Source: Corynebacterium occultum (GTDB lineage: Bacteria; Actinomycetota; Actinomycetes; Mycobacteriales; Mycobacteriaceae). From it: DNA of 64,000 bases. The DNA lies in NCBI RefSeq assembly GCF_009734425.1, contig NZ_CP046455.1, forward strand, positions 992,001 through 1,056,000. Direction: 5' to 3'. The notes under the pieces were generated by a model. That model was not told the DNA's origin and ran no database searches. It saw only the letters and a list, made by a program, of their open reading frames with translations. Positions 40,925 through 48,777 of this stretch are shown one piece after another (the first letter of the stretch is position 1; each line of letters opens with the position of its first letter). The position numbers and the translations under genes were made by a program.

Positions 40925-41956
40925 TCAGCTCACTGCGAGGCTGAGGCTCTTATTCTGTAGTTCGACGGCGACGTCGATGAGCATGTCTTCCTGCCCACCG
41001 ACATACCCCCGACGCCCGATCTCGCGCAGGATATCCTGCGCGGGTACCCCATACCGCTGCGAGGCCCGTTCCGCATGGAACAGGAAAGAGTTGTACACCC
41101 CCATCTGTCCCTGCACGATCGACCCCCGATCCATCATCGGCAACCGCTCCACCATCGGACGCAACACCTCCTCCGCAGCGTTTTGCAACCCGGTGACATC
41201 CACCCCACCGATATCCATCCCCAACCGATCAAACACCGTCGCCAACACCTCCAACGGCGCATTACCCGCACCCGCACCCAACCCATACAAGGTCCCGTCA
41301 ACCTGGGTGGCACCCTCCCGCACCGCGAGCAGGGAATTAGCCACCCCGAAGCTCAAATTCTGATGCCCATGGAACCCGACCTCCGCATCCCCACCAACCT
41401 CATCCAGGACCGCACGGACCCGATCCGCGGCCTGCTCCATGATCAGATGCCCCGCGGAATCGACCACGAACACACACTCACACCCCGCATCCACCATGAT
41501 CCTGGCCTGGGCCGCCAACTCGGCCGGGGCCAGGCGATGCGAGAGCATCAAAAACCCACCGGTCTCCAACCCCATCTCCCGGGCGGCCTGAAAATGCTGG
41601 ATGGCAACATCCGCCTCCGAACAATGCGTCGCGATCCGCACCACCGACACCCCCCGCAGGGCGGCTTCCTTGAGATCCGCGATCGTCCCCACCCCGGGCA
41701 GCAACAGCGCGGCGATCTTGGCGTGGCGGGCCTCATCGACGGCTGCTTCGATCAGGTCGAGTTCATCGGTGCGGGAGAACCCGTAGTTAAACGTCGATCC
41801 CCCCAGCCCGTCACCGTGGGTGACCTCGATCATCTCGACGTGGGCGTCATCGAGGGCGCGGACCACCCGACGGACCTGGTCGGTGGTGTACTGGTGGCGC
41901 ACCGCATGGGAACCATCACGCAGGGTGGAGTCATTGAGACGAATTGTGGTGCTCAT
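40925..41956 (-). CDS. dmpG: 4-hydroxy-2-oxovalerate aldolase
   Basis: Cleaves 4-hydroxy-2-oxovalerate to pyruvate and acetaldehyde, the last carbon-carbon step of the meta-cleavage pathway. The 343-residue DRE-TIM enzyme has RLNDSTLRDGSHAVRH (Asp14, His21), GFHGHQNLSFGVANSL (metal His196 and His198) and the C-terminal LIDVAVEL tail. It forms a channelling complex with the dehydrogenase encoded next to it. Codon choice differs from its neighbours: all five leucines in residues 219-248 are TTG, and GGG, GGT and GCG are frequent. This suggests a separate origin for the gene. It is the last gene of the operon. Confidence 0.97.
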   Translation of the reverse strand: MSTTIRLNDSTLRDGSHAVRHQYTTDQVRRVVRALDDAHVEMIEVTHGDGLGGSTFNYGFSRTDELDLIEAAVDEARHAKIAALLLPGVGTIADLKEAALRGVSVVRIATHCSEADVAIQHFQAAREMGLETGGFLMLSHRLAPAELAAQARIMVDAGCECVFVVDSAGHLIMEQAADRVRAVLDEVGGDAEVGFHGHQNLSFGVANSLLAVREGATQVDGTLYGLGAGAGNAPLEVLATVFDRLGMDIGGVDVTGLQNAAEEVLRPMVERLPMMDRGSIVQGQMGVYNSFLFHAERASQRYGVPAQDILREIGRRGYVGGQEDMLIDVAVELQNKSLSLAVS

Positions 41957-41992: not shown

Positions 41993-42916
41993 CTAGGAAG
42001 CGCTGAGTGCGAGGAGCTCGGCGTACTTGTCGGCGGTGGCCACCGCCGCGGAGGTGATGATGTCAAGGTTGCCGGCATACTCCGGCAGGTAATCCGCGGC
42101 CCCACGAACCTGAATCAGGATGGTCACCCTCGCCCACCCGTTCCAGTCCTCACGGGCCTGATCAAACTGCGGCTGTGCGGTGAGCTGGTAACCGGGCACA
42201 TAGGCCTGGACCTCTGCCACGCGTTCCTCGATGGCGGCGGTGATCCGGTCCTGGAGGGCACCGGGTTCCCCGGCGGCGGCGGGCAGGGCACAGTAGACGG
42301 TGTTGCGCATCAGCATCGGGGGTTCCACCGGGTTGAGGACCAGCACGACCTTGCCTTTTTTCGCCCCTCCCAACTCGACCAGGGCATGTTGGGTGGTGTC
42401 GATGAACTCGTCGATGTTGGCGCGGGTACCGGGGCCGGCGGATTTCGAGGAGATCGAGGAGATCACCTCGGCGTATTCCACATCGACGACCGAGGACACG
42501 GCATGCACGATCGGGGTGGTCGCCTGCCCACCACAGGTGATCATGTTGACGTTGTCGACCGCCTGGAGGGCATCGAGGTTGACCGCGGGGCACAGGTAAG
42601 GGCCCACCGCTGCCGGGGTCAGGTCAATCGCGCGGATCCCGGCGGCCCGGTACTTCGGGGCGTTGGAGGCATGCGCTGCGGCGGAGGTCGCCTCGAACAC
42701 CAGGTCTGGTTTCGGGTCCTGGGCGACCAGCCAGTCCACGCCTTCGGCGGAGACGGTCAGTCCCAACGCGGCGGCGCGTTTCAGCCCGTCCGAGGCGGGG
42801 TCGACACCGACCATGTAGATCGGTTCGATGTGGTGGGAGTTGTTGAGCAGTTTGATCAGCAGATCGGTGCCGATATTACCCGGACCAACGATCGCCGCCT
42901 TCAATTTCTGGGACAT
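41993..42916 (-). CDS. dmpF: Acetaldehyde dehydrogenase (acetylating)
   Basis: Converts acetaldehyde, NAD and CoA to acetyl-CoA, accepting the aldehyde directly from the aldolase partner. The 307-residue protein has an N-terminal NAD-binding Rossmann motif ([17 protein letters not shown], 8-24) and the catalytic Cys128 in [11 protein letters not shown]. The length is normal for DmpF/HsaG. The 36-bp gap to the aldolase gene and the 42-bp gap to the hydratase gene support a single transcript. Confidence 0.97.
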
Positions 42917-42958: not shown

Positions 42959-43744
42959 TCAGAAGAAGGTGATGTTGAGCTTGCCGAATGTGCCGTAGTC
43001 GACCTCAACGTCCGCACCCGGCGTGACGGGGGCGGCACCGCAGAAGCTACCGGTGAGGATGATGTCACCAGCCTTGAGTGGAACGGACTGGGCGGCCAGC
43101 ACGCCGGCCAGCCACTTCAAGGGTTCCAGGGGGTGGCCCATGACCTCTGAGCCAGTACCTCGGCCGGTTTCGGTCCCGTTGACGGTCATCACTGCGGTGA
43201 CCTGTGCGAGCTGATCAAGGGGGATGCCCACGGGTTCCGAGAGGATCACCGCACCGCAGGAGGCGTTGTCGGCGATGGTGTCCACCAGGGCGATGTTCCA
43301 GTCTTCGACACGGGAGTCGATGATCTCCACCGCGAGATAGACAGCATCGACGGCTGCGGCGACGTCGTCTAGCGTGGGATCTGCGGGCAGATCACGGCCG
43401 AGGCGGAACGCGAGTTCGGGTTCGACCTTCGGGGCGATGAACAGTGCGGTGGGGATGGGATCGGTATCCCGGTACATCATGGCATCGGTGAAGAATCCGA
43501 AGTCGGGGCTGTCGACACCGAGCTGGCGCTGCATAGCCAACGAGGTCAGACCGATCTTGCGGCCGACGACCTGCTCACCGCGGTCGATGAATGCCTGCTC
43601 CTGGAGTTGCTGGATCCGGTAGGCTCCGGTGACGTCGAGGTTGGGTATGGTCTCGCGCGGCGGCTGGATCGGTTGGCTGGATTCGTAGGCAGCCAGGAAG
43701 TCCTGGGCCACATCGTGCAGGGCATCAGTTGCGGTAGTCGTCAT
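42959..43744 (-). CDS. 2-keto-4-pentenoate hydratase
   Basis: Hydrates 2-hydroxypenta-2,4-dienoate to 4-hydroxy-2-oxovalerate (DmpE/MhpD/HsaE type). The 261-residue product has VGRKIGLTSLAMQRQLGVDSPDFGFFTDAMMY, the metal-binding KVEPELAFRLGRDL and VYLAVEIIDSR acidic residues, and NASCGAVILSEP. The ATG at 43744 has AAGGA upstream and a TATATA box just before that, suggesting an internal promoter; the frame to 43843 is not needed. Confidence 0.95.
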   Translation of the reverse strand: MTTTATDALHDVAQDFLAAYESSQPIQPPRETIPNLDVTGAYRIQQLQEQAFIDRGEQVVGRKIGLTSLAMQRQLGVDSPDFGFFTDAMMYRDTDPIPTALFIAPKVEPELAFRLGRDLPADPTLDDVAAAVDAVYLAVEIIDSRVEDWNIALVDTIADNASCGAVILSEPVGIPLDQLAQVTAVMTVNGTETGRGTGSEVMGHPLEPLKWLAGVLAAQSVPLKAGDIILTGSFCGAAPVTPGADVEVDYGTFGKLNITFF

Positions 43745-43793
43745 GGATCTATTCCTTATATATAGGTGTGATAGTTCTGGGCGTGAATCAGAT

Positions 43794-43834
43794 GAGCAGC
43801 CGGGCCGACCTGTGTGTCGGTGGCCCAGCTGCTC
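43794..43834 (-). promoter_or_regulatory. Intercistronic hairpin between the C-C hydrolase and hydratase genes
   Basis: GAGCAGC (43794-43800) pairs with GCTGCTC (43828-43834). Inside it GGGCC and GAC can pair with GGCCC and GTC, giving a long GC-rich stem. It is followed on the transcript by a TATATA element close to the hydratase start. It could attenuate or process the upstream transcript. No long U-tract is seen, so full termination is uncertain. Confidence 0.5.
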
Positions 43835-43864
43835 TCCGAGCACGTCCCTTAAGTCTCTGTCGGG

Positions 43865-44722
43865 TTAGCTGCCGATGAAGTCCGTGACGATGCGGTTGAA
43901 TTCTTCACTGTGCTCCAGCTGTGCCCAGTGACCGCACTGGTTGATCAGGTAGAGGCGGGAGTTTGGGATCAGGGTGTTCAGCTGCATGGAGTGTTCGAAG
44001 TGGACCACCCGGTCATCGCGGCCGTGGATCAGCAGGCTCGGTGCCGTGATGGTGGCGATGTCCTTGGCCTCGGAGAAGCGCAGGAAGCCGTCCGGCTTGC
44101 CGAATCCCTCGAGGAAGTTCGCACGGTGGTCATCGCGCTCGGCGGCAGCCTCGGCACGCTGGGTGACCATTTCATCGGAAGCGAAACCCGGGTCGAAGGT
44201 CATGATGTTGGCCAGCTCGCGCATGACCTCCTTGGTCGGGTTCTTGTAACCCTCGACCAGGATCTTCATGCCCTCGGAGAGACCACCCGCGGAGAAGATC
44301 TGGGGTCGTGACAGACCCGGTGCGCCCATGGAGATCAGGTGGGAGACACGCTCCGGGTGTGCGATCGCCATGTTGATGCTGATCATGCCGCCCATGGAGT
44401 TGCCGACCAGGGCCGCCTTCTCGATGCCCAGCTCATCCATGAATTGGCGGAGTGCCTCCACCGAATCGGAATCCTGTGCCCGAACTGCGGAGGAATTGCC
44501 CCAGCCCGGGACGTCGATTGCCAGGACGCGGAACTTTTCGGCCAGCGGCGCAATGTTCGGGGAGAAGTTGCTCCAGCCGCCGGCTCCGGGGCCACTGCCG
44601 TGAATCAGGATGACCGGGTATCCGGTGCCCGCTTCCTGGTAGTGGATGTTCCAGTCCTTGGTCTGAACGGTGCGGGAGGTGGATTCGCGGGTGATTTCGG
44701 TGGGAATGAAGGTGGTGGTCAT
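43865..44722 (-). CDS. Meta-cleavage product C-C hydrolase (alpha/beta hydrolase)
   Basis: A 285-residue alpha/beta hydrolase of the BphD/HsaD/MhpC type that cleaves the ring-fission product to 2-hydroxypenta-2,4-dienoate and a carboxylic acid. HGSGPGAGGWSNF (41-53) forms the oxyanion region, GNSMGG (nucleophile Ser109), an Asp in LLIHGRDDRVV and the His in CGHWAQLEH complete the triad. The GNSMGG and GSGPGA motifs are diagnostic for the C-C hydrolases. The carboxylic acid released, and so the pathway substrate, is unknown. Confidence 0.95.
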   Translation of the reverse strand: MTTTFIPTEITRESTSRTVQTKDWNIHYQEAGTGYPVILIHGSGPGAGGWSNFSPNIAPLAEKFRVLAIDVPGWGNSSAVRAQDSDSVEALRQFMDELGIEKAALVGNSMGGMISINMAIAHPERVSHLISMGAPGLSRPQIFSAGGLSEGMKILVEGYKNPTKEVMRELANIMTFDPGFASDEMVTQRAEAAAERDDHRANFLEGFGKPDGFLRFSEAKDIATITAPSLLIHGRDDRVVHFEHSMQLNTLIPNSRLYLINQCGHWAQLEHSEEFNRIVTDFIGS

Positions 44723-44827: not shown

Positions 44828-46021
44828 CTAGTAGAAGAGCTTCTGGTCGTGTTCCAGGCCGTAGACATCGAGCGAGTAGTTGGTGTAGATCGACTCGGCG
44901 ATGTTGCACATGTGGTTGGCTGCGGCGTGCGCGTCGCGCCAGTAGCGCTGAATCGGCTGCTCCAGACGGATGGCACTGCCACCGGCGTAGGTGTACAGCT
45001 TCTCGATCGCATTGAGTGCTCGGCGGGAGCTGCGCACCTGAATGGTGCGGAAGTAGAGACGCTCGGAGCGGGTCAGCTTGCGACCGGAATCAACGATGGC
45101 CATCATGCGGCGTGCACCATCGAGGACCTGGAGCTTGCTGGCCTCGATTTCGGCGACACCTTCGGCATAGGCGGCCTGCTGGAAGGGGTTCGCTGCAGCG
45201 CGACCACCGAAACCACCGACCTTGTCACGGGTGAACTCAACGAACTCGTTGAGGGCGCCGTCGCAGATGCCGATCGTCGCGGAAGCGATGGCGTAGGAGA
45301 ACACGGTGCCGAAGACGAGGTTGTAGATCGGCTTATCCGGCGCATACTGTTCGGTCAGTCGACCGGCATCCAGGTCTTCATTGTTGATCACACGGTAATC
45401 CGGGACGAAGACATCTTCGACGATCAGGTCCTTGCTGCCCGTGCCCTTGAGTCCGACGACATTCCAGGATCCTTCGACGATCTCGTAGTCGTTGCGGGGG
45501 AGAACGAAGTGGTACCAGTTCGGTCCCGGCTCCGGCTTGCCATCCTCGTCGACGATGATGCCGCCGATGGTGACCCAGTCGCAGGCGTCGGTGCCGGAGG
45601 AGAAGGACCAGCGGCCGCTGAAGCGGAATCCACCCTCCACTCGGGTTGCTCGGCCTGAGGGCATGTAGGGGGAGGCAGTCCATACATCCGGGTCCTCACC
45701 CCAGATCTCCTGCTGGAGCTTCGGGTTCACCTGGCTGAGTTCCCAGGGGTGGACACCGACCACGCCTGCCACCCAACCGGCGGAGGGGTTGAGGGCTGCG
45801 ATATCCATGACTGCTTCGCAGAATTCGTCCAGGCCGGACTCGTAACCGCCGAGTTCACGGGCCAGTGCCATGCGGGTCACGCCGGTGCTGCGGAGGAGTT
45901 CGACGACTTCGTCGGGAAGTTTACCGGCGGCATCGGTGGCCGGGGCCAGATCGCGCAGCTCTTGCGCGACCGCGGCGATGCGGTCCTTGACGGGGGTGAT
46001 GACCTGAGTTGCGGTAGTCAC
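44828..46021 (-). CDS. Flavin-dependent monooxygenase, oxygenase component (HsaA-like)
   Basis: A 397-residue group D flavin monooxygenase with acyl-CoA-dehydrogenase fold, resembling HsaA (3-HSA hydroxylase). It carries ALARELGGYESGLDEFCEAVMDIAALNPSAGWVAGVVG, FSGRWSFSSGTDACDWVTIGGI and a C-terminal RYWRDAHAAANHMCNIAESIY segment. It is expected to add a hydroxyl ortho to a phenolic OH, using reduced flavin from the adjacent reductase and forming a catechol for the dioxygenase. The exact phenol is not determinable here. Confidence 0.93.
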   Translation of the reverse strand: MTTATQVITPVKDRIAAVAQELRDLAPATDAAGKLPDEVVELLRSTGVTRMALARELGGYESGLDEFCEAVMDIAALNPSAGWVAGVVGVHPWELSQVNPKLQQEIWGEDPDVWTASPYMPSGRATRVEGGFRFSGRWSFSSGTDACDWVTIGGIIVDEDGKPEPGPNWYHFVLPRNDYEIVEGSWNVVGLKGTGSKDLIVEDVFVPDYRVINNEDLDAGRLTEQYAPDKPIYNLVFGTVFSYAIASATIGICDGALNEFVEFTRDKVGGFGGRAAANPFQQAAYAEGVAEIEASKLQVLDGARRMMAIVDSGRKLTRSERLYFRTIQVRSSRRALNAIEKLYTYAGGSAIRLEQPIQRYWRDAHAAANHMCNIAESIYTNYSLDVYGLEHDQKLFY

Positions 46022-46065: not shown

Positions 46066-46590
46066 TTACTGGGGGTTCAGACCGAAGTAACCACCGCGGT
46101 GGAATACCAGGGGGTCCATCTGATCGTTGTTCTCGCTGAGGTCATGGACCCTGCCAGTCACCAGGACATGGTCGCCGACCGGGACGACGCGTTCCAGGGT
46201 GCAGTCGATCCACAGGAGGGCTTCATCCAGTCGCGGGGCACCAGTGGCACCGCGGGTCGTGGGCACTCCCTCGAAGCGTTCTTCGCGGGGGCCGCAGAAC
46301 TTGCGGGAAAGGTGTTCGTGCTCGGTGCCGAGGACATTGACGCAGAAGTGGCCGGCCTGGATGATGTCCGTCAGGGTCGAGGAATCACGTTTCGGGAAGA
46401 ATCCGACGATCGGGGGATCGAGGGAGATCGAGGTGAAGGTTCCCACCACCATGCCCGAGGGGCCTCCGTTGCCGGCGACGGTGATGACGGAGACACCGGT
46501 GGGGTAGCCGCCCAGGGTTCTGCGAAAAAGCAACGGATCGATATCTACCGAGGGAAGTTCGAAGGTCTGCAGGTCAAGTGTGGTGGTCAT
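46066..46590 (-). CDS. Flavin reductase component (HsaB-like)
   Basis: A 174-residue flavin:NADH reductase with split-barrel fold: FRRTLGGYPTGVSVITVAGNGGPSGMVVGTFTSISLDPPIVGFFPKRDSST, the flavin-binding pattern of two-component monooxygenase reductases. It supplies FMNH2 or FADH2 to the oxygenase encoded 44 bp downstream. It shares fold but little sequence with the flavin reductase-like gene at 23557. Confidence 0.93.
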   Translation of the reverse strand: MTTTLDLQTFELPSVDIDPLLFRRTLGGYPTGVSVITVAGNGGPSGMVVGTFTSISLDPPIVGFFPKRDSSTLTDIIQAGHFCVNVLGTEHEHLSRKFCGPREERFEGVPTTRGATGAPRLDEALLWIDCTLERVVPVGDHVLVTGRVHDLSENNDQMDPLVFHRGGYFGLNPQ

Positions 46591-46630: not shown

Positions 46631-47542
46631 TTAGGCTTCGACAGAGACGTTCGAGAGGTCTTCGATGACCATGCCCGGGCCCATCTCGGCGAGGTTGGGG
46701 TGCGGCTTGTGTCCCCAGATCGAGAAGCTGTGGAAGGTCTTGGCGACCCAGAGGTCGTCGACCTCGAGTCCGCCGGAGCCGTACTCGATGGCGAAGCCAG
46801 AGGGGGACTTCACGTAGAAGGAGGTCACCAGGTCATTGACGTGGCGGCCCATACCCATGGTGATCGGGAGGTCGGCTTCGGTGACCAGGTCGTGGGCGAT
46901 GCCCACGTCGTCGATGGAGTTTGTCTCGAACATCAGGTGGTGGACTCCGATGCAGGGTCCTTCAGCCAGCGCGAAGGAGTGGTGGCGGCCGTTGACGTGG
47001 TAGAAGCGGACATCGAACGGGCCACGGATGTAGTCGGAGAGTTTGAAGCCCATGACGCCGCGGTAGAACTCCTCGGCTTCCTTGAGGTTCGGGACAATGA
47101 GGACGGCGTGGCCCAGGCCCTGGTCACCGGTCCGGAAGCCGGCGTGGGAACGGCCGGGATGGAAGGTGGAGGGGTAGAAGAACTGGCCCCAGGCGATCTC
47201 GTGACGGAAGCCGTAGGGGTCGGTGAACCAGAAGTAGCCTTCGACACCGCGGTCCTCGCGCTCGACGGCGTTGGCGTAGGTGACCTCGACACCGTGGGAA
47301 GTCAGGCGCTGTTCCATCTCTGCGGCCTCAACTGCGGAGTTGACGGTCCAGCCGAGGTAAGCGACATCATCCTTGTCGCCGGGGTAGACAGCCAGACGGA
47401 AGAGTGCGTCGTCCATGCGGTAGCGCTCCCCACCATCCGGGGAATCTGCGCCGCGCTCCAGGCCCAGGATGCGGGTACCGAAGTCGTTCCAGTCGGCGTG
47501 GTTCGGGGTGCTGATGCCCATGTAGGCGAATGCGTTGATCAT
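46631..47542 (-). CDS. Type I extradiol ring-cleavage dioxygenase (VOC family)
   Basis: A 303-residue two-domain BphC/HsaC-like extradiol dioxygenase. The Fe(II) ligands fit His145 (GLGHAV), His201/202 (HHLMFE) and Glu253 (IEYGSGG). Supporting His187 (GRHHSF) and His234 (GRHVND) sit at the positions of the BphC second-shell histidines. It cleaves a catechol between or next to the hydroxyls. It is the first gene of the operon, with AAAGGAG before the ATG, downstream of the CTAG array. Confidence 0.95.
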   Translation of the reverse strand: MINAFAYMGISTPNHADWNDFGTRILGLERGADSPDGGERYRMDDALFRLAVYPGDKDDVAYLGWTVNSAVEAAEMEQRLTSHGVEVTYANAVEREDRGVEGYFWFTDPYGFRHEIAWGQFFYPSTFHPGRSHAGFRTGDQGLGHAVLIVPNLKEAEEFYRGVMGFKLSDYIRGPFDVRFYHVNGRHHSFALAEGPCIGVHHLMFETNSIDDVGIAHDLVTEADLPITMGMGRHVNDLVTSFYVKSPSGFAIEYGSGGLEVDDLWVAKTFHSFSIWGHKPHPNLAEMGPGMVIEDLSNVSVEA

Positions 47543-47594
47543 GACGGGGTCTCCTTTGAAGAGTGAAAAATCTGGGGGCGTTCACGGTGTCCAC

Positions 47595-47654
47595 CTAGAC
47601 CATCTGATCTAGAAATACTGAACTAGATCTCGCAATCTAGAATGTCTGCTCTAG
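47595..47654. promoter_or_regulatory. Array of five CTAG cores at 14-bp spacing, putative operator
   Basis: CTAG occurs at 47595, 47609, 47623, 47637 and 47651, exactly 14 bp apart. The spacers are partly alike: CTG recurs in three of them (units 1, 2 and 4). Within the array GATCTAG (47606-47612) and CTAGATC (47623-47629) form a perfect 7-bp inverted pair, and CTAGAT/ATCTAG (47623-47640) another. It lies 53-112 bp upstream of the dioxygenase start and is shared with the divergent TetR-family gene, its likely binder. Confidence 0.7.
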
Positions 47655-48066
47655 GTTGCTTAGAAATATAACTCAGGTCACATGCCAGCACAATGGGTGA
47701 TCTGAAACTAATTTCCTCAAGGGTGTGGCAAGGGCACTTTCGGCTACCTGGAAGAGGGGTTGGGGAAAGGGTGAAAGTCCAGCTCAGGGGGGTTAATTCG
47801 AGATCCTTGAGGAGGTAGAATTTTCCCGAAAAAGTTTTGAATATAAATCACCCGGGGTCCTGGCGGGAACCTGGGAAGTGCTGGGTCCACAGATTTTTCT
47901 CCCCTTTTTAGGACTGAGATCGATCAGTTTGAAGTAGCTGGGAAGGGATCCAGGACTCGGGAAAGGGGGTGGGCGGCCCCTGGCTGAGTGATCCGGAAAA
48001 CAGGAACTACACTGGGTTTTTAGATGAAACAATCAATTTCGGGTCGGAAAGACCGTGGGGGAGAAC
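47655..48066. other. Intergenic region between the CTAG array and the TetR-family gene
   Basis: No gene is seen. The sequence is less GC-rich than its surroundings, with A/T-rich stretches (47660-47680, 47810-47850, 47890-47935, 48000-48040). The TetR-family promoter probably lies in the last of these. Confidence 0.45.
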
Positions 48067-48777
48067 ATGGATAAAAAAGGGGTACGCTCCCAGCGCAGCG
48101 CAGAATCCGTTGACAAGATCCTGCAGGCGGCGCAGGAACTGGCCAGGGAGCTGGGTTATGAGGGAACAACCATCGCCAAGGTCAGTAAGCGCTCCGGTTT
48201 GCCCACCGGATCGATCTACTGGCATTTCGGTGACAAGGACAAGCTTTTTGCGGCCCTGATCAACCGCTATGTCGATGCCTGGTTCAACAAGTACGACTGG
48301 ACGGTTCGGGAGGGGGAGCGCCCCGTGGACCGGATGACCGAGATCATGACCACCAGGGCAAAAGAGGCGACTGATCCCTCAAGTGCCTGGGGGATCGGCC
48401 TGTCAATGGCCCTGGAGAGGCGCCTGGAGGGTTCTGCGGCGCGGGAAACTTTCCTGGAGATCCGCCGGAGCAGGTTGCAGTTCATCGCCGAATTCTGGCG
48501 GGATAACCTCCCCGGCAATGTTCTGACGGCGGACCCTGAGCTGCCGACGAAGTTGGCGCAGTTCGTCGTCGCTTTCTCTGACGGCTGGTTCATTTCCGCA
48601 AGTGCCAATGAGGACTGGGATCTGGAGAGCCATGCCGGGATCATGGCAACCACGCTTGATCAGATGATCGGCACCGCGGAACGCAAGGCATTCGCGAAGG
48701 AGGGCCTGGATGAAACCCAGACCAGCAGATGGGGGCATACGCTGCCTGGGGAACCTGCGGAGGGCTGGGGACTCTGA
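48067..48777 (+). CDS. TetR/AcrR family transcriptional regulator
   Basis: A 236-residue regulator with an N-terminal TetR helix-turn-helix: RSQRSAESVDKILQAAQELARELGYEGTTIAKVSKRSGLPTGSIYWHFGDKDKLFAALI (about 6-65). The C-terminal half is the ligand-binding domain. A GGGGGAG precedes the ATG at 48067; the GTG at 48055 lies in the ribosome-binding region. Divergent from the meta-cleavage operon, it is the obvious candidate to bind the CTAG array. The inducer would be a pathway substrate or intermediate. Confidence 0.93.
   Translation: MDKKGVRSQRSAESVDKILQAAQELARELGYEGTTIAKVSKRSGLPTGSIYWHFGDKDKLFAALINRYVDAWFNKYDWTVREGERPVDRMTEIMTTRAKEATDPSSAWGIGLSMALERRLEGSAARETFLEIRRSRLQFIAEFWRDNLPGNVLTADPELPTKLAQFVVAFSDGWFISASANEDWDLESHAGIMATTLDQMIGTAERKAFAKEGLDETQTSRWGHTLPGEPAEGWGL

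What the first reader, a model, noticed from the sequence alone, without database searches (positions are those of the whole stretch)
47595..47654. Five CTAG cores at an exact 14-bp period upstream of the meta-cleavage operon
CTAG at 47595, 47609, 47623, 47637 and 47651 are evenly 14 bp apart, and CTAG is usually rare in bacterial genomes. Dyads GATCTAG/CTAGATC and CTAGAT/ATCTAG sit inside. The array lies between a TetR-family gene and the operon it probably controls. Regular 14-bp iteration rather than one palindrome suggests cooperative binding of several dimers.
Basis: partly seen in the sequence, partly recalled or inferred. Interest (0 to 1): 0.72.

Follow-up and report, generated by a model that had tools for sequence, protein, structure and literature searches.

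The report
Five-step repressor landing strip
A run of five CTAG sequences spaced exactly 14 bases apart is very probably the DNA switch on which a TetR-type repressor sits to shut off a set of genes that break open aromatic rings; the switch type is familiar, but this chained five-part form is unusually long.

Summary
In detail: CTAG at 47595, 47609, 47623, 47637, 47651, the window's only run of five or more for any 4-mer at periods 8-40, and the only such array in the 3.2-Mb genome. Best reading: a chained operator of the divergent TetR regulator (48067-48777) before the meta-cleavage operon. (1) The closest orthologous cluster read (L113; dioxygenase 52% identical, same regulator/dioxygenase/reductase order) has one CTAG-N10-CTAG in the same gap. 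(2) Of 30 CTAG-14 arrays found without regard to regulators, 10 of 12 with inward A/T flanks have TetR within 200 bp (ours, at about 410 bp, counts as a miss), 0 of 18 others. (3) Among 44 homologues of our TetR, exact pairs lie upstream of 4 of 8 with a P-x-G-S recognition helix and 0 of 36 without (not independent). The 14 bp is the width inside one dimer's palindrome, not one dimer per CTAG. McbR's published box (TAGAC-N6-GTCTA) has the same geometry. A cluster with the same enzymes, L112, uses another dyad. Binding is untested. New variant of a known kind.

The parts
47595..47654 (.). Array of five CTAG at exact 14-bp period (chained operator)
   Evidence: unique in genome
47595..47612 (.). 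Pair 1-2, CTAGACCATCTGATCTAG: full match to CTAGANYRNNYRNTCTAG; also one mismatch from the published McbR box
   Evidence: score 15.1; McbR consensus from PMC9210681
47609..47626 (.). Pair 2-3, CTAGAAATACTGAACTAG: weakest site (three mismatches, counted by eye)
   Evidence: profile score 8.3; not among the matches with up to two mismatches
47623..47640 (.). Pair 3-4, CTAGATCTCGCAATCTAG: one mismatch to the consensus
   Evidence: score 14.4
47637..47654 (.). Pair 4-5, CTAGAATGTCTGCTCTAG: best-scoring site of the window, full match
   Evidence: score 24.3
47665..47693 (-). Possible promoter of the operon: -35-like TTGTGC (47693-47688), 17 bp, -10-like TATATT (47670-47665); the array would lie just downstream
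   Evidence: read from the sequence; the promoter scan found none at its threshold; inference only
47550..47557 (-). Likely ribosome-binding site (AAAGGAGA) of the dioxygenase gene
   Evidence: read from the sequence
48067..48777 (+). TetR-family regulator (TetR_N), recognition helix GLPTGSIYWHF; ATG at 48067, GTG possible at 48055
46631..47542 (-). Extradiol dioxygenase, BphC/HsaC-like, first gene of the operon
   Evidence: (270.5 bits to the BphC model, cut-off 366.45)
46066..46590 (-). Flavin reductase, HsaB-like
44828..46021 (-). Flavin-dependent monooxygenase, HsaA-like
43865..44722 (-). C-C bond hydrolase, HsaD/BphD-like
42959..43843 (-). 2-keto-4-pentenoate hydratase-like (scanned from 43768)
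41993..42916 (-). Acetaldehyde dehydrogenase (acylating)
   Evidence: (over cut-off)
40925..41956 (-). 4-hydroxy-2-oxovalerate aldolase-like
   Evidence: ORF; named by recognition of the sequence (recalled), not scanned

Best explanation
The array is a multi-site operator for the divergently encoded TetR-family repressor. One TetR dimer recognises an 18-bp palindrome made of two neighbouring CTAGs, CTAGANYR-NN-YRNTCTAG, with its two HTH heads on the inward-facing half-sites. CTAG is its own reverse complement, so an inner CTAG can serve as right half of one site and left half of the next; five CTAGs give four overlapping sites. Sites 1-2 and 4-5 fit the consensus fully, share no CTAG and have centres 42 bp apart, about four helical turns, so two dimers would sit on the same face; the middle sites are weaker and may fill at high repressor levels. 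Bound repressor would block the promoter of the dioxygenase-first meta-cleavage operon, and a phenolic substrate or ring-cleavage product would release it. Shown: the array, its rarity, its form, and the repeated link of this site type with TetR genes and with this regulator subgroup. Inferred: binding by this TetR, the promoter position, same-face occupancy, cooperativity and the inducer.
For: Non-random and unique. Closest orthologous cluster read, L113: TetR 45% identical, dioxygenase 156 of 298 aligned residues identical, same order regulator/dioxygenase/reductase, with CTAGAACGTGCAATCTAG in the intergenic gap, a full match to the consensus. Homologous TetRs beside clusters with an MhpB-like ring-cleavage gene (named by eye): L110 has CTAGAACGTAACTTCTAG between TetR and the operon; L111 has CTAG/CCAG/CTAG at 14 bp between TetR and the MhpB-like gene, and a second pair before an MFS-like gene. 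Regulator-blind scan: of 30 fetched array loci, 10 of 12 with inward A/T flanks have TetR within 200 bp, 0 of the 18 others. Flank polarity: 43 of 44 inward against 8 of 26 outward positions are A/T in 13 other arrays; ours 7 of 8 against 0 of 2. A profile from those 13 arrays ranks our four pairs as the top four sites of the window. Of 44 TetR homologues, exact pairs within 400 bp upstream in 4 of 8 P-x-G-S and 0 of 36 others; with at most one mismatch 6 of 8 and 1 of 36. Of 19 TetR_N genes in the genome only this one has P-x-G-S (one other, L137, has the near form P-I-G-T).
Against: No binding, footprint or expression data. The array is about 410 bp from the TetR gene, whose own upstream 400 bp lack a CTAG pair. 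Two of eight P-x-G-S homologues (L086, L108) have no pair within 400 bp upstream. A cluster with the same catabolic genes (L112) has another regulator subtype and a different dyad, CTGTAGTAAGCACTACAG. One array-linked TetR (L065) has S-G-T rather than P-x-G-S, and one array with inward A/T flanks (L040) has no TetR nearby. The nearest known relatives of the regulator (67-78% identical, P0002-P0010) could not be read at DNA level. The profile and the flank test partly rest on arrays picked because they showed the CTAGA form, and the 0.8 rule was set after seeing them; the arrays fetched by TetR homology alone give only 9 of 10 inward against 4 of 8 outward (summed). L090, L115 and L116 are one locus type, as are L088 and L122, so the 44-homologue counts are not independent. 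With up to two mismatches the consensus matches 27 places on one strand of the genome, so a loose match means little (backward control 293).
Confidence: 0.78

Rival explanations
1. The array is a TetR-type operator, but another regulator uses it, in particular McbR, the sulphur repressor of corynebacteria, whose box TAGAC-N6-GTCTA has the same TAG-N10-CTA geometry.
For: Pair 1-2 (TAGAC-N6-ATCTA) is one base from the published box. The genome holds about eight boxes of the general type TAGACC-N4-GGTCTA (counted by eye), one in front of a metK-like gene (named by eye).
Against: Only one of the eight half-sites of the array begins TAGAC; the others begin TAGAA, TAGAT, TAGAG or TAGTT. The orthologous gap in L113 has its pair beside the orthologous TetR. 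The operon has no visible link to sulphur.
Confidence: 0.09
2. Each CTAG is the centre of its own dimer site, so five dimers bind 14 bp apart.
For: A single CTAG in the context TTCTAGAA lies before the P-x-G-S homologue L108. L111's second pair and L068 have A/T flanks on the outer sides too.
Against: The flanking A/T is mostly inward: 43 of 44 against 8 of 26 in 13 other arrays, 7 of 8 against 0 of 2 here. Single CTAGs also lie upstream of ten homologues of the other helix type (by eye), so a lone CTAG is no marker.
Confidence: 0.08
3. A remnant minisatellite: tandem duplication of a 14-bp unit without regulatory role.
For: 18 of the 30 fetched CTAG-14 array loci lack the inward A/T form and an adjacent TetR; 15 of these 18 have units at least 89% identical.
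Against: Our units 1-4 average 52% identity with their neighbours, CTAG included, and adjacent units share 2-5 of 10 bases outside it, while CTAG is intact five times; the array is intergenic and the site type recurs at the orthologous place in L113.
Confidence: 0.03
4. An RNA element of the operon leader, with CUAG repeats pairing.
For: The likely leader contains the array and can pair GAUCUAG with CUAGAUC.
Against: Fold not clearly better than shuffles (z -1.13; 31 of 200 shuffles fold as well); no Rfam match at gathering score; in L110 and L113 the same motif lies in divergent gaps beside TetR.
Confidence: 0.02

Closest known systems
McbR box of Corynebacterium glutamicum (TAGAC-N6-GTCTA)
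   Same: TetR family, same genus (genus of the window inferred), same outer geometry TAG-N10-CTA, inverted repeat (PMC9210681 and PMC2723105, passages)
   Different: Half-site TAGAC instead of TAGANYR; cited there as one box, not a chain of five; regulates sulphur metabolism
KstR operator of mycobacteria (TAGAACnnGTTCTA)
   Same: TetR dimer on a palindrome with CTAG-like ends and AAC/GTT inside (PMC1995591, passages)
   Different: CTAG ends 12 bp apart, not 14; mostly single sites; lipid/cholesterol regulon
RolR operator of Corynebacterium glutamicum (29 bp, two dimers)
   Same: TetR repressor of an aromatic (resorcinol) catabolic operon in the same genus, more than one dimer on the operator (described in PMC9210681)
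   Different: Half-sites TGAAC-N4-GTTCA and TTCAT-N2-ATGAA; no CTAG chain
EthR operator (55 bp, homo-octamer) and QacR IR1 (28 bp, two dimers)
   Same: TetR repressors that fill a long operator with several dimers; 55 bp is close to the 60 bp here (described in PMC9210681)
   Different: Different half-sites; EthR uses long direct and inverted repeats, QacR one long palindrome
LmrA/YxaF (QdoR) boxes of Bacillus subtilis
   Same: QdoR represses an aromatic (flavonoid) dioxygenase gene through two operators (PMC8481877, passages); box geometry TAGACC-N4-GGTCTA is recalled, not seen in a call
   Different: Different organism group and half-site; not chained
CTAG-14 arrays beside other actinobacterial TetR genes (L052, L053, L056, L057, L060, L062, L063, L064, L065, L068)
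   Same: Three to five CTAGs at 14 bp with inward A/T flanks, within 200 bp of a TetR gene
   Different: Mostly three or four CTAGs (L062 has five); other TetR subfamilies and other target genes

Membership tests
TetR-family repressor and operator | Neighbouring regulator has the TetR_N domain | tested here: met
   PF00440 54.9 bits, cut-off 24
TetR-family repressor and operator | Inverted-repeat operator in the gap between regulator and target | tested here: met
   array 47595-47654; palindromic consensus shared with 13 other arrays; 410 bp from the regulator, 52 bp from the target
TetR-family repressor and operator | Operator conserved at orthologous divergon | tested here: met
   1 of 2: L113 has one CTAG-N10-CTAG in the same gap; L112, with the same enzymes but the other regulator subtype, does not
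TetR-family repressor and operator | Direct binding released by a ligand | not testable with these tools
   needs EMSA or footprint
McbR regulon | TAGAC half-sites, N6 spacer, both sides | tested here: not met
   only the left half of pair 1-2 has TAGAC (consensus)
McbR regulon | Target gene of sulphur metabolism | tested here: not met
   operon is aromatic-ring meta-cleavage
KstR regulon | TnnAACnnGTTnnA (14-bp palindrome) | tested here: not met
   CTAG spacing is 14, not 12
KstR regulon | Regulator is KstR | tested here: not met
   26.8 bits against a cut-off of 280
Multi-dimer TetR operators (EthR/QacR/RolR-like) | More than one dimer bound, cooperatively | not testable with these tools
   four sites present, two non-overlapping full matches; stoichiometry unknown
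Minisatellite | Near-identical tandem units | tested here: not met
   mean neighbour identity 0.52; not listed by Tandem Repeats Finder

The most novel reading that the evidence does not exclude
A chained operator in which a self-complementary half-site is shared by successive repressor dimers: four TetR dimers climb the array, each turned about 120 degrees from the last (14 bp = 1.33 turns), returning to the same face after three steps (42 bp = four turns), so that repression is graded or switch-like by how far the chain is filled. Together with the split of the recognition helix it would define a readable code within this TetR group: P-x-G-S heads read CTAG at 14 bp, P-x-S-S heads read GTAG-N6-CTAC.
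Probability: 0.2. Interest if true: 0.6.

Novelty: new variant of a known kind. Interest (0 to 1): 0.4.

Why it matters
If right, it gives a sequence signature (CTAG-N10-CTAG with inward A/T) that finds operators of several actinobacterial TetR subfamilies from raw DNA, ties it within one group to one position of the recognition helix, and offers a natural ladder of one to four overlapping sites for testing how repressor dimers share half-sites. It also names a likely control switch for an aromatic-ring catabolic operon in what is, by its relatives, a Corynebacterium.

Tried and rejected
RNA leader structure: fold not clearly better than shuffles, no Rfam family. Minisatellite: units too unlike. 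Sigma-70 promoter scan: none at threshold, so the promoter position is only inferred. Plasmid searches gave 3 records with 38-40% TetR relatives and 60 records with dioxygenase relatives up to 44%, whose upstream regions were not read. Family scans around G715 (169 genomes) and G672 (5) gave none at E 1e-34. Structure prediction was not run. Literature: none of the listings or passages I saw in nine completed searches describes this array or a CTAG-N10-CTAG TetR operator for a meta-cleavage operon; the library holds open-licence papers only, and some searches returned far more papers than were listed, so this is weak evidence of absence. MftR, AqdR and MAB_4384 operators were looked at in passages and differ or give no CTAG; the CysR paper and the QsdR paper gave nothing on the point.

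Biases I am aware of: the CTAGA class of arrays was first seen by eye; one search then applied one rule (inward A/T fraction 0.8 or more) to all 30 fetched loci. 31 of 397 genomes matched; G307 and the second places of some genomes were not fetched. The tool's backward control (GATC-based) also matched in many genomes (1 against our 3 in the own genome), so the match count alone is no evidence; the link with TetR is. The TetR model was trained on 43 homologues of the window's TetR, without the TetRs of those arrays; that did include some of them. In one search L118 and L121 came from a pattern that itself demands inward A/T; L115, L116, L122, L056 and L062 were left out of the non-redundant count, and L060 was not used. 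In one search L039 was left out as the same place as L078. In one search L113 was read with a wrong offset; corrected. The genus name rests on L039, a named Corynebacterium record that appears to be the same contig as one of the same-genus genomes, and on the A21 protein.

Full report
What was claimed and what is there. CTAG is depleted in this DNA (28 found, mean 86.1 in shuffles). No other 4-mer has a run of five or more at any period from 8 to 40 in the 64-kb window, and 5000 shuffles of the 521-bp intergenic region gave no run above three. In the whole genome the pair CTAG-N10-CTAG occurs eight times on one strand; four make up this array and the other four are isolated.

Surroundings. The array lies between a TetR-family gene (ATG at 48067, plus strand) and a minus-strand run of genes for an extradiol dioxygenase, a flavin reductase, a flavin-dependent monooxygenase, a C-C hydrolase, a hydratase, an acetaldehyde dehydrogenase and an aldolase. 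Except for the acetaldehyde dehydrogenase the scanned enzymes stay below the cut-offs of the NCBIfam models named for them (the aldolase was not scanned), so the substrate cannot be named; HsaABCD and BphCD are the nearest models. The array ends 52 bp from the dioxygenase start codon and is about 410 bp from the TetR start. A -35/-10-like pair (TTGTGC, 17 bp, TATATT) lies just upstream of it for the operon's direction, but the promoter scan found none at its threshold. The operon looks rare in the genus: in 36 other genomes of the genus no dioxygenase relative was better than E 2.8e-11. The regulator's nearest solved relatives by sequence are TetR regulators of entries 5d18 and 6a4l (E about 1e-12).

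Related loci found without regard to the regulator. A scan of 397 genomes of the order for three CTAGs at 14-bp steps hit 31; 30 loci were fetched, our own among them. With a TetR model trained on 43 homologues of the window's TetR, 10 of the 12 loci whose inward CTAG flanks are A/T (fraction 0.8 or more) have a TetR open frame within 200 bp; the other two are our own array, whose TetR is farther off, and L040. None of the 18 other loci has one (Fisher p 2e-6); 15 of those 18 have units at least 89% identical and look like minisatellites. So this form of array marks TetR operators, in several TetR subfamilies; L052, L053, L057, L063 and L064 stand divergent to an alpha/beta-hydrolase-like gene (named by eye).

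Related loci found by the regulator. Homologues of the window's TetR were sought in 242 genomes of the genus (E 1e-15), 394 of the class (1e-25), 392 of one class genus (1e-30), 15 of another (1e-28), and 169 and 5 of two families (1e-34, none). The closest at DNA level, L113 (45% identity), stands divergent to a dioxygenase 52% identical to ours (156 of 298) followed by the reductase (73 of 142 in the part held); the gap holds CTAGAACGTGCAATCTAG. L110, L115 and L116 hold CTAGAACGTAACTTCTAG between TetR and an MFS-like gene, which in L110 is followed by an MhpB-like gene; L111 and L122 hold CTAG/CCAG/CTAG between TetR and an MhpB-like gene (these genes named by eye). Of 44 homologues, 8 have the recognition-helix motif P-x-G-S, as ours has; 4 of these 8 have an exact pair within 400 bp upstream and 6 of 8 a pair with at most one mismatch, against 0 of 36 and 1 of 36 (L089) for P-x-S/T-S forms (p 5e-4 and 3e-5; not phylogenetically independent, L090/L115/L116 and L088/L122 being one locus type each; L086 and L108 have none). 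The other group shows GTAG-N6-CTAC instead in 10 of 36, against 0 of 8 (p 0.17). In the tree (60 rows) our TetR groups with P0005 of Corynebacterium sp. A21 (100/100) and with Arthrobacter and Streptomyces relatives (88/94); the fork that unites the P-x-S/T-S rows is weakly supported (85/84). L112, which has the same set of enzymes, has a P-A-S-S regulator and a GTAG dyad: the operon can come with either switch.

Where the site lies. If each CTAG were the centre of a site, flanks on both sides should be alike. They are not: in 13 non-redundant arrays other than ours 43 of 44 inward positions are A/T but only 8 of 26 outward ones (p 1e-9); in ours 7 of 8 inward and 0 of 2 outward. Two of the 13 were fetched with a pattern that demands this, and several were noticed because of it; the four arrays of this set fetched by TetR homology alone give 9 of 10 against 4 of 8 (summed). 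The consensus is CTAGANYR-NN-YRNTCTAG. A full match occurs in 4 of 148 genomes of the class (own included), seven sites on one strand, two of them our pairs 1-2 and 4-5 (the backward, GATC-based control matched in many genomes). Of the five others three lie beside TetR genes, one (L121) does not, and one (L119) appears to lie in a coding region. With up to two mismatches our genome has 27 matches on one strand (backward control 293), about eight of them of the McbR type. A profile from the other arrays scores our pairs 24.3 (4-5), 15.1 (1-2), 14.4 (3-4) and 8.3 (2-3); the next site in the window scores 5.2. Against random spacers between two CTAGs the four are reached by 0.02%, 4%, 5% and 24%, so only pair 4-5 stands out strongly by its spacer.

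Mechanism. I take the array for a chained operator of the neighbouring TetR. Two dimers can sit on pairs 1-2 and 4-5 without sharing a CTAG, 42 bp apart, about four turns (inference from 10.5 bp per turn of B-DNA); the middle pairs overlap both. Repression would come from blocking the operon's promoter; the inducer is unknown. The genome has 19 TetR_N genes and only this one carries P-x-G-S; L137 has P-I-G-T.

Compared with what is known. The McbR box TAGAC-N6-GTCTA (PMC9210681, PMC2723105, passages) has the same TAG-N10-CTA frame, so the geometry is not new. KstR's TAGAACnnGTTCTA (PMC1995591, passages) is two base pairs shorter. EthR's octamer on 55 bp, QacR's two dimers on 28 bp and RolR's two dimers on 29 bp at a resorcinol operon (as described in PMC9210681) are precedents for several dimers on one operator. 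What I did not find described is the chain of five shared, self-complementary half-sites and the link of the CTAG-14 form with the G-S recognition helix (nine paper searches; open-licence library only). McbR is the main rival for pair 1-2, which is one base from its box; the genome has McbR-like boxes such as TAGACCAAGCGGTCTA before a metK-like gene (the gene named by eye).

Verdict. Real, probably functional, a new variant of a known kind. Interest 0.4: useful as a signature and a test bed, not a surprise of principle.

Noticed in passing
L124 1501-1518 (G000:C1:1669603-1669620); also G000:C1:954102, 177343, 2354497, 2767388: McbR-like boxes of the type TAGACCAAGCGGTCTA recur in the window's genome, one in front of a metK-like gene.
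   Followed up: partly
L131/L133 (G000:C1:2501709-2502569): Two TetR_N matches in one open frame of 450 aa: possibly a double TetR protein in the window's genome.
   Followed up: no
L097, L098, L099, L101, L107 (upstream of the TetR genes): Homologous TetRs with a P-A-S-S recognition helix carry one or two GTAG-N6-CTAC dyads (such as GTAGTGATCGCTAC) instead of CTAG pairs.
   Followed up: partly
L112 5590-13055: The same catabolic gene set with a regulator of the other operator type, which suggests exchange or divergence of the switch while the operon stayed.
   Followed up: partly
L052, L053, L057, L063, L064 around 1441-1560: A TetR / alpha-beta-hydrolase-like divergon with three or four CTAGs at 14 bp recurs in five genomes of the family.
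   Followed up: partly
window 48042-48054: Dyad GGTC-N5-GACC just upstream of the TetR start; possibly an autoregulatory site of another kind (read).
   Followed up: no
window 47655-48063: About 400 bp between array and regulator without an obvious gene in the ORF list of 100 aa or more, apart from overlapping frames; long for such a divergon (L113 has about 106 bp in all).
   Followed up: no
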